A stretch of DNA of 48,508 bases from Candidatus Alcyoniella australis (GTDB taxonomy: Bacteria > Lernaellota > Lernaellaia > JAVCCG01 > Alcyoniellaceae). Below are positions 24,875 through 48,508 of the stretch, one piece after another. The notes under the pieces are model-generated. The model had not been told where the DNA came from. It searched no databases and saw only the letters and a list, made by a program, of their open reading frames with translations. Location of the stretch: positions 1 through 48,508 of the forward strand of contig JAVCCG010000069.1 in NCBI GenBank assembly GCA_030765605.1. The letters run 5' to 3'. Position 1 is the first letter of the stretch, and each line of letters opens with the position of its first letter. The position numbers and the translations under genes are program-made.

Positions 24875-24931
24875 TTGCCGCCGATTATCCGCGACCGGAC
24901 GCACTGCGGGCAAGCGCCGGGGCACCTTTGA

Positions 24932-24995
24932 GGCGGCTTAGAGCCGCCACAAAACTCGCGTAGTACGCTGGTCCTAATCCAACGGTCCGCCCCGC
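24932..24995 (-). repeat. Intergenic repeat family, copy B
   Basis: Read on the minus strand it begins CGGACCGTTGGATTAGGACC, continues AGCGTACTACGCGAGTTTTG and ends in the hairpin GGCGGCT-CTA-AGCCGCC (24950-24934). It aligns base for base with copies D and E at the right end of the window. Tandem with copy A. Confidence 0.75.
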
Positions 24996-25000
24996 GCCCG

Positions 25001-25068
25001 GTACTTTTGAGGTGCCCGCATGGCACGCGAGCGAACCATAGTCGTAGCTCAGCGACCTTCCCCGCGAC
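25001..25068 (-). repeat. Intergenic repeat family, copy A
   Basis: Minus strand: GCGGGGAAGGTCGCTGAGCT, then ACGACTATGGTTCGCTCGCG, then TGCCATGCGGGCACCTCAAA and AGTACCG. The hairpin is degenerate (GGCACCT against AGTACC). Most similar in its middle part to copy C. It starts 19 bases downstream of the argC stop codon. Confidence 0.7.
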
Positions 25069-25087
25069 GGAAGATGTGGGAGATGGT

Positions 25088-42162: not shown

Positions 42163-42340
42163 GTTATATAGCCAAATTAATCATCAACCGTGATTTCGGT
42201 TTAAAGGCTGACTTAAGCTGCCGTATTTACACAATCAGCTTATACCCATCGCAAAATACACAAGCCAGCGGGGCCGCGAATCCACAAACCTGAATTCAAT
42301 TCATAGCCTAGCTGTCGGGTAATGTTTGAGTCGCCCGGCA

Positions 42341-42403
42341 AGGTCGTGGCATTACGACTATGGTCGGCTCGCGTGTTTTACCGCCCGGCTTAAAGCCGGG
42401 GAG
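42341..42403 (+). repeat. Intergenic repeat family, copy C
   Basis: Box AGGTCGTGGCATTACGACTA (42341-42360), middle TGGTCGGCTCGCGTGTTTTA (42361-42380), then hairpin CCCGGCT-TAA-AGCCGGG (42384-42400). The hairpin lies seven bases past the rho stop codon, on the other strand's 3' side, and may also serve as the rho mRNA 3' structure; no U-tract follows. Confidence 0.75.
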
Positions 42404-42407
42404 GGGG

Positions 42408-47260: not shown

Positions 47261-47614
47261 ATGAGCCGTGCATTGACTCCTTGTGTGGTCGTGCTGTCGA
47301 TTTGCTGCCTGCTGGCCGCGGCGACCTTTATCTCCGATTCGGCCCGCGCCGCGGACTGCCCGACGACCTACGAGAACTTCGGCAAAGCTTTCATGGAGCA
47401 GTACTGCACCCGCTGCCACGCCAGCGATAAGAGCGGCTTCGGCCGCAAGGGCGCACCCGCGGGCTACGACTTCGACCTGGTCGAGAAGATCGCCGAAGAC
47501 AAGGGTGATATCCTCGAGTGGGTGATCGATAAAAAGTCGATGCCGCCGCGCGGCGACAAGCCCGGCGCGGACCAGCGCAATAAGCTCAAAGCCTGGCTGG
47601 ACTGCGAATACTGA
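47261..47614 (+). CDS. Periplasmic monohaem cytochrome c
   Basis: 117 residues. Signal peptide at 1-31 ending ARA. One haem site, Cys49-Thr-Arg-Cys52-His53 ('YCTRCHASDKSG'), and a likely axial Met94 in 'DKKSMPPRGDKPGA', the class I layout. Two further cysteines, Cys33 and Cys115, flank the domain and could form a disulfide. The length after cleavage, about 86 residues, is typical of small soluble electron carriers or of c-type domains that accept electrons from dehydrogenases. No redox partner gene is adjacent, so the donor is unknown. Confidence 0.88.
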   Translation: MSRALTPCVVVLSICCLLAAATFISDSARAADCPTTYENFGKAFMEQYCTRCHASDKSGFGRKGAPAGYDFDLVEKIAEDKGDILEWVIDKKSMPPRGDKPGADQRNKLKAWLDCEY

Positions 47615-47670
47615 GGTAAAGATCGCCCGGCTTAGTGCTGATGCCCCGGCGAGCAGGTGGGGTGTGGGGA

Positions 47671-47701
47671 GGCGGCGCGATGGCGCAGCCGTCGCGCCGC
47701 C
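47671..47701. terminator. Very stable GC hairpin downstream of the cytochrome c gene
   Basis: GGCGGCGCGA (47671-47680), then T-GGC-GCA-GCC-G, then TCGCGCCGCC (47692-47701). A 10-bp perfect stem continues after one T-G mismatch into a 3-bp inner stem. It lies 57 bases after the stop and is followed by GTCTCTCCTCCCC rather than a T-tract. Confidence 0.5.
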
Positions 47702-47714
47702 GTCTCTCCTCCCC

Positions 47715-48008
47715 GCGCTCGGCAAAAATCAGTTTGAGATTTTTCCTACTAAGCTCAAAGGCGATGCAATTGTGTGCGCGGGGGATTGATCAGCGGGTTC
47801 TCATCCGAAAATAGGGCTGACCAGCGTTATTGGCAAAGCGGGACACTGGGTGCGTCCGCCAGCAGATGAAAAGAAGTCTTAACCTGTCTCGATTAACTGG
47901 GCGCCTTTGAGAACCCTCTGAGCAAGCCTCCGTGCGAACCAGAGAACTATCTCAGCGTATTTCGGACCGGCAATCCGAAAAAATCTCAAACTGATTTCTG
48001 CCGAGCGC
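47715..48008. mobile_element. 294-bp element bounded by 31/32-bp inverted repeats (MITE-like or structured RNA)
   Basis: Left end 47715-47745 starts GCGCTCGGCAAAAATCAGTT and continues TGAGATTTTTC. The right end 47977-48008 is its reverse complement with one substitution and one extra T. The interior has no open frame of note. Nested inverted pairs occur: CTCAAAGGCG (47754-47763) with 47902-47911, and GGGTTCTCA (47795-47803) with 47908-47916. These compete for the same partner. No target-site duplication is visible at the borders. Identity as transposon remnant is inference. Confidence 0.6.
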
Positions 48009-48014
48009 CTACCC

Positions 48015-48036
48015 AATAATGTTATTCAACATTATT
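48015..48036. repeat. AT-rich palindrome (copy 2)
   Basis: AATAATGTT (48015-48023), loop ATTC and AACATTATT (48028-48036). Preceded by AGCGCCTA and followed by ATTACCCTCC, flanks that also surround the palindrome at 6772-6794 although the stem bases differ in matched pairs. Confidence 0.6.
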
Positions 48037-48061
48037 ACCCTCCTCCCATTTTCCGATGCGG

Positions 48062-48122
48062 AGAAGGTCGTGGCGCTAGGACTAGCGAACTGCGCGAGTT
48101 TTGCCCCCGGCTCAAAGCCGGG
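48062..48122 (+). repeat. Intergenic repeat family, copy D
   Basis: AAGGTCGTGGCGCTAGGACT, then AGCGAACTGCGCGAGTTTTG, then C and the hairpin CCCCGGCT-CAA-AGCCGGG ending at 48122. Tandem with copy E, only six bases apart, as A and B are in tandem. Confidence 0.78.
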
Positions 48123-48128
48123 CGCGGA

Positions 48129-48187
48129 AAAGGTCGTGGCATTAGGACTAGCGAACTACGCGGGCCATGTGGCGGCTCAAAGCCGCC
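48129..48187 (+). repeat. Intergenic repeat family, copy E
   Basis: AAAGGTCGTGGCATTAGGAC, then TAGCGAACTACGCGGGCCAT, then GT and the hairpin GGCGGCT-CAA-AGCCGCC (48171-48187). The hairpin contains the stop codon and last codons of the convergent MFS gene. Confidence 0.78.
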
Positions 48188-48508
48188 GCTCGCCCCGGAC
48201 CAGGAGCAGCACCAGCGAGGCCAGAGCCGCGGCCACAGCGCCGCAGGCAAAGGCTGCCGGCGCGCCGACAAACTTCCAGATCAGGCCGAACAACAGCGAG
48301 GCGGGCAGCGCGCCGATCCCCACGCTGAGGTGGAACCAGCCGTAGGCGCTGCCGCGCTGCTGCGCCGGGACCAGGTCCGCGACCAGCGCCCGCTCCGGCC
48401 CCTCGACCAGGGCGTAGTACATGCCGTAGGCCGCGAACAACGCCCAGACGTGCCAGGCAGTTGTGGCCAGGCCCAGCAGCAGGTAGACCACGGCGTATAA
48501 TCCCCAAC
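48177..48508 (-). CDS. MFS transporter, C-terminal part (cut by window edge)
   Basis: About 110 codons are visible, entering from the right edge in frame (WGLYAVVYLLLG). Four hydrophobic segments remain. 'MYYALVEGPERALVADLVPA' followed by 'QQRGSAYGWFHLSVGIGALP' is the MFS loop and helix pattern with the acidic/'P..RG.A.G' motif between helices 8-11. The last helix 'AFACGAVAAALASLVLLLV' ends in RGERRL. The substrate cannot be told. The last codons lie inside repeat copy E, so insertion of the repeat may have supplied the present C-terminus. The rest of the gene is outside the window. Confidence 0.82.
   Translation of the reverse strand, partial: WGLYAVVYLLLGLATTAWHVWALFAAYGMYYALVEGPERALVADLVPAQQRGSAYGWFHLSVGIGALPASLLFGLIWKFVGAPAAFACGAVAAALASLVLLLVRGERRL

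What the first reader, a model, noticed from the sequence alone, without database searches (positions are those of the whole stretch)
47715..48008. 294-bp segment with 31/32-bp terminal inverted repeats and competing internal pairings
The ends match over 31 bases with one substitution and one inserted T. The interior is non-coding. Two internal helices (47754-47763 with 47902-47911; 47795-47803 with 47908-47916) use overlapping partners, so they exclude each other. This could be a MITE whose full-length parent sits elsewhere, or a structured RNA with two folds. No target-site duplication is evident, which leaves both options open.
Basis: partly seen in the sequence, partly recalled or inferred. 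Interest (0 to 1): 0.65.

Follow-up and report, generated by a model that had tools for sequence, protein, structure and literature searches.

The report
Mosaic palindromic intergenic repeat module
The 294-base inverted-repeat segment is one interchangeable stem-loop module of a large repeat family that fills gaps between genes in this one uncultured bacterium; the copies keep their base pairing while their sequences change, like known bacterial palindromic repeats but with an unusually strict order of parts.

Summary
In detail: 47715-47744 and 47979-48008 are complementary at 29 of 30 bases, the strongest inverted repeat in the window, and both internal helices exist. The segment ("core B") is not a stand-alone MITE. 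The genome holds 16 matching stretches (about a dozen loci); every readable end of B abuts hairpin linker A on the left or hairpin D on the right, unless other modules have replaced part of it. B is one of several core families, each with its own ~30-bp inverted ends, in a mosaic intergenic repeat with a fixed order: E(outward) - hairpin K - core - hairpin A - core - hairpin D - E(outward). K-to-D polarity holds in 12 of 12 facing pairs and E direction in 33 of 33. Arms covary: in the inner stem 11 of 28 pairs changed on both sides (0 of 500 shuffles). No transposase-bearing parent was found; the one REP-associated transposase (RAYT) is not flanked by the repeats. None was found in six class relatives. 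Best reading: a lineage-specific, non-autonomous, REPIN/BIME- or BOX-like repeat, a new variant of a known kind. How it spreads (probably as a DNA hairpin, moved in trans) is inferred.

The parts
47615..47625 (+). remnant of boundary hairpin K (GGTAAAGATCG), directly after the stop codon of the cytochrome-c-like ORF
   Evidence: identical to the left half of K, found at about two dozen sites
47626..47647 (+). remnant of a first core (CCCGGCTTAGTGCTGATGCCCC), mostly deleted
   Evidence: matches the end of the core next to linker A at C151
47648..47714 (+). linker A; hairpin 47671-47684 / 47688-47701 with 3-nt loop, G-rich left and C-rich right shoulders
   Evidence: stem varies between copies while pairing is kept
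47715..48008 (+). core B, the reported 294-bp segment
   Evidence: 16 matching stretches in the own genome by BLASTN, aligned
47715..47744 (+). left terminal inverted repeat (outer stem)
47776..47803 (+). inner stem, 5' arm
   Evidence: covariation over 11 homologous copies
47908..47935 (+). inner stem, 3' arm
   Evidence: covariation over 11 homologous copies
47979..48008 (+). right terminal inverted repeat (outer stem)
48009..48042 (+). linker/boundary hairpin D (AATAATGTT-ATTC-AACATTATT at 48015-48036)
   Evidence: follows the right end of B in all readable copies, and other cores too
48058..48123 (+). E unit 1 (66 bp, with a hairpin of variable stem)
   Evidence: 64 matching places in the genome for D+E; tandem arrays at other loci
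48124..48189 (+). E unit 2; its hairpin overlaps the stop codon (48177-48179) of the MFS-like ORF
   Evidence: direct repeat of unit 1; for the ORF end

Best explanation
The segment is one exchangeable stem-loop module ('core B') of a lineage-specific, non-autonomous, mosaic palindromic intergenic repeat. The complete element reads E(-) ... K hairpin - core - A hairpin - core - D hairpin ... E(+); simpler ones have one core. Each core is a long interrupted hairpin, with an outer stem (the TIR) and, in B and G cores, an inner stem. Shown: multiplicity, order, polarity, intergenic position, mosaicism and conservation of pairing. Inferred: the element spreads or is rearranged as a folded single DNA strand, moved in trans by a hairpin-recognising enzyme (the genome's single RAYT is the only candidate found) and/or by recombination and template switching between the shared hairpins. 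Switching would also copy one arm onto the other and keep arms complementary. Copies persist between genes, more often beside 3' ends than beside promoters, where they do least harm.
For: 16 BLASTN stretches. Readable B ends abut A or D. Core families B, G, H share the layout and an internal motif GTTCTCATCCG..GGACTGA (near-identical in H). Outer arms: own-arm pairing mean 25.2 of 28 against 13.1 for arms crossed between families; 24 of 28 positions show compensatory change. Inner stem: 11 of 28 pairs changed on both sides, covariation score 0.279 against 0.141 shuffled, 0/500; sliding the pairing lowers pairing from 89.5% to 30-47%. K-to-D polarity 12/12, E direction 33/33. One of 56 repeat blocks had a predicted ORF inside; 13 convergent against 4 divergent. 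Predicted fold gives hairpin-core-hairpin-core-hairpin at C1. The left arm of copy C67 equals the right-arm variant of C151 over 29 of 30 bases, suggesting arm-to-arm copying. One RAYT over cut-off (NF047646).
Against: The RAYT gene has no strong module match within 1.5 kb, whereas RAYT genes elsewhere are described as always flanked by their REPs (PMC2817692). The E hairpin has no invariant tetranucleotide head. No empty site could be examined (no close relative held), so mobility itself is not shown. Covariation could equally be selection on an RNA.
Confidence: 0.6

Rival explanations
1. Core B is an ordinary MITE derived from a DDE insertion sequence; its TIR is the transposase binding site and the parent is lost or unassembled.
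For: Size, TIR, multiplicity and lack of coding fit; GC 51% against 65% for the window; several copies lie at contig ends so a parent could hide in a collapsed repeat.
Against: Readable B ends abut linker A or D instead of varied flanks with a duplication; no TIR outside these copies; PF01609 and PF02371 absent, and the rve-type hits carry no modules.
Confidence: 0.15
2. The composite is a conserved structured RNA (or an mRNA 3'-end element) and pairing is kept by selection on the RNA.
For: Strong covariation in both stems; position more often beside gene 3' ends, 13 convergent to 4 divergent; whole-region fold z = -5.9.
Against: No Rfam match near a gathering score; no terminator-like site and one weak promoter-like site; G-U cells exceed A-C cells only 12 to 7, so no clear strand signature; the low z is due to the TIRs, the interior alone has z = -0.3; absent from all six class relatives; cores are freely swapped.
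Confidence: 0.2
3. Assembly or strain-mixture artefact creating fold-back sequence.
For: Draft of 157 contigs with many repeat-caused contig ends.
Against: Many diverged copies in unique gene contexts inside long contigs; contamination 0.05%.
Confidence: 0.02

Closest known systems
REPINs / BIMEs (REP palindromes with RAYT; PMC3116915, PMC2817692)
   Same: Intergenic, many copies, inverted units around a variable pairing spacer with compensatory changes; mosaic clusters; a RAYT in the genome; module F here is an inverted doublet of E-like units, REPIN-like.
   Different: Far larger composite with strict K-core-A-core-D order; no invariant GTAG/GTGG-type head on the hairpin; the RAYT gene is not flanked by the repeats.
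BOX elements of Streptococcus pneumoniae (boxA-boxB-boxC; PMC3049150)
   Same: Composite of ordered modules with a repeatable part, strongly folded, confined to one lineage, no transposase of its own.
   Different: Here the interchangeable parts are whole cores with family-specific inverted ends; target duplication not shown; sequences were not compared.
MITEs and other small mobile repeat sequences of bacteria (PMC2229807)
   Same: Short, non-coding, inverted ends, multi-copy, extended hairpin fold.
   Different: The inverted-repeat unit is not seen outside its linkers; no parent and no target duplication found.

Membership tests
MITE | non-coding, short, multi-copy with terminal inverted repeats | tested here: met
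MITE | TIRs shared with a transposase-bearing element in the same host | tested here: not met
   TIR found only in these short copies; DDE family searches negative or without modules; the assembly is a draft
MITE | target-site duplication at insertion | tested here: inconclusive
   flanks of B are shared linkers, so no duplication can be read; no empty site available
REP/BIME/REPIN | abundant intergenic palindromes, inverted doublets and tandem clusters | tested here: met
   E units and F doublets
REP/BIME/REPIN | conserved tetranucleotide head (GTAG/GTGG class) next to the palindrome | tested here: not met
   sequence before the E hairpin varies: GTGG, GCTG, GCAG, GCCC
REP/BIME/REPIN | RAYT gene flanked by the same repeats | tested here: not met
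   RAYT present but no strong module match within 1.5 kb
BOX | ordered modular hairpin composite | tested here: met
   (order and polarity); it works like BOX in this respect
BOX | boxA/boxB/boxC sequence homology | not tested
   no BOX sequences were compared; BOX is described as nearly confined to S. pneumoniae and S. mitis (PMC3049150)
Rfam families | match over the gathering score | tested here: not met
   four chance-level hits, all far below their cut-offs

The most novel reading that the evidence does not exclude
A new class of hairpin-ended mobile DNA: a polar K-to-D element with exchangeable long stem-loop cores, moved as folded single-stranded DNA by an enzyme acting in trans, whose cores recombine at shared hairpins, so that many inverted-repeat families arise from one scaffold.
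Probability: 0.2. Interest if true: 0.7.

Novelty: new variant of a known kind. Interest (0 to 1): 0.45.

Why it matters
It is a well-documented within-genome example of intergenic repeats that change sequence while keeping pairing, with a strict part order not broken in any complete block examined. This makes testable whether such repeats spread as DNA hairpins and how new inverted-repeat families arise by arm copying and module exchange. It also warns that a TIR pair read alone can be mistaken for a complete MITE.

Tried and rejected
Full-length transposase parent: not found. Known RNA family: none. Terminator or promoter role: no terminator-like site, one weak promoter-like site. Two-fold switch: helix 47754-47763/47902-47911 has no left partner in the homologous G and H cores. 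Unusual folding of the interior alone: none on either strand (z = -0.3 and -0.6), so the evidence for structure comes from covariation, not energy. Relatives: none by DNA in 59 other genomes, none convincing by covariance model or DNA in six class relatives (best non-own E 0.07); exact D pattern absent from genome contigs and exact TIR pattern absent from viral contigs (the own genome may be left out there). Naming the organism through the sulfatase failed.

Full report
OBSERVATION. The reported arms are real: 47715-47744 and 47979-48008 match at 29 of 30 bases, extended to about 31/32 with one extra T. Self-BLAST ranks them first in the window at 50.9 bits; the next is 30.1, as is the best of three shuffled windows. 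Both internal helices exist and share 47908-47911. The region is non-coding, between a cytochrome-c-like ORF ending at 47614 and an MFS-like ORF ending at 48177 on the other strand.

COPIES. BLASTN of 47700-48020 against the own genome (4.29 Mb, 157 contigs) gives 16 long stretches, from 100% to 85% identity. Several stop at contig ends, as expected where an assembler breaks at repeats. Alignment shows that B is continued on the left by linker A and on the right by linker D where those ends are readable. At some loci part of B is replaced by E or F modules (C67, C63, C134, C5, C92, C119). So B is a module, not an independent insertion.

THE WIDER FAMILY. Searching the flanks gave 13 (A side) and 64 (D+E) places. 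Reading the loci showed further cores with their own inverted ends, here called G, H, I, J. Alignment of complete examples shows that B, G and H share an internal motif (GTTCTCATCCG..GGACTGA) and the same flanking linkers. Boundary hairpin K (TAAAGATCG..CGATCTTT, mostly followed by GTGTGTAGG and a GCTCGC or GCGAGC box) occurs at about two dozen sites. F looks like an inverted pair of E-like units: its right half matches E well, its left half (reverse complement) only weakly.

GRAMMAR. In the stretches examined, facing boundary hairpins are always K then D on one strand (8 K+D+ and 4 D-K-; no K+K- or D-D+ pairs), besides three direct duplications (two K+K+, one D+D+). E units on the outer side always point outward: 20 of 20 at K, 13 of 13 at D. 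K-D spacing is about 196-198 bp in three one-core blocks and about 470-580 bp in five blocks with two cores; others lie between or below. A home-made gene call found 55 of 56 repeat blocks free of genes; neighbours were 13 convergent, 4 divergent, 17 tandem, 22 at contig ends; one locus (C119) was counted twice because two fetched stretches overlap. Predicted folding of the C1 composite gives hairpin - long stem-loop - hairpin - long stem-loop - hairpin inside a G-rich/C-rich closing stem; the other composites folded show most of the same parts.

PAIRING IS KEPT. In the inner stem (28 pairs, 11 copies), 89.5% of cells pair against 83.0% when partners are shuffled; 11 pairs show changes on both sides (6.1 expected), none of 500 shuffles reaching that, and sliding the partner by 1-3 columns drops pairing to 30-47%. 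Caveat: related copies inflate such counts. For outer arms across 13 elements in five families, own arms pair at 25.2 of 28 positions, arms crossed between families at 13.1, with compensatory change at 24 of 28 positions. Linker A hairpins vary widely in sequence yet fold in every case tested. The second is the tip of the well-supported inner stem.

MECHANISM. Conserved pairing may reflect selection on RNA, selection on a DNA hairpin, or mechanical copying of one arm onto the other. A hint of the last: the left arm of C67 equals the right-arm variant of C151 at 29 of 30 bases and differs from the usual left arm. G-U cells exceed A-C cells only 12 to 7, so a strand-specific RNA is not indicated. 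The genome has one RAYT as the only hairpin-type transposase seen, but it is not flanked by the modules, against the usual RAYT-REP arrangement (PMC2817692). A trans-acting mover is therefore inference.

DISTRIBUTION. No match in 59 other genomes by DNA nor in six class relatives by covariance model at better than E 0.07 or by DNA of D+E. The family is confined to this lineage as far as could be seen; the nearest held relatives are only of the same class, so the age of the family is unknown.

VERDICT. A new variant of the known kind 'mosaic intergenic palindromic repeats': it works like REPIN/BIME and BOX elements but fails two defining REP features tested here, and BOX homology was not tested. 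The original MITE reading is partly right; the two-fold RNA switch is not supported.

Noticed in passing
window 24918-25085 and 42330-42407: Two further intergenic sites of E-type hairpin units in the same window, away from the reported segment.
   Followed up: partly
L088:1351-1923 (-), genome contig C95:13478-13834: Single REP-associated tyrosine transposase (NF047646, 146 bits) in the genome, about 4 kb from a composite repeat but without modules beside it.
   Followed up: partly
window 48170-48187: The stop codon of the MFS-like ORF lies inside the hairpin of the second E unit (GGCGGCTCAAAGCCGCC), so the repeat seems to have supplied the gene's 3' end.
   Followed up: no
L020/L090 (contig C119:139744-140260): Tandem array of about eight 64-67 bp E units whose hairpins differ in a loop base and in the flanks; may vary in length between strains.
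   Followed up: no
L019:946-1452 (contig C67), L018:4980-5323 (contig C63): Core B interrupted by a doublet of E-like units (F): at C67 it replaces about 60 bp of the apical loop, at C63 everything to the right. A nested-insertion or exchange event.
   Followed up: partly
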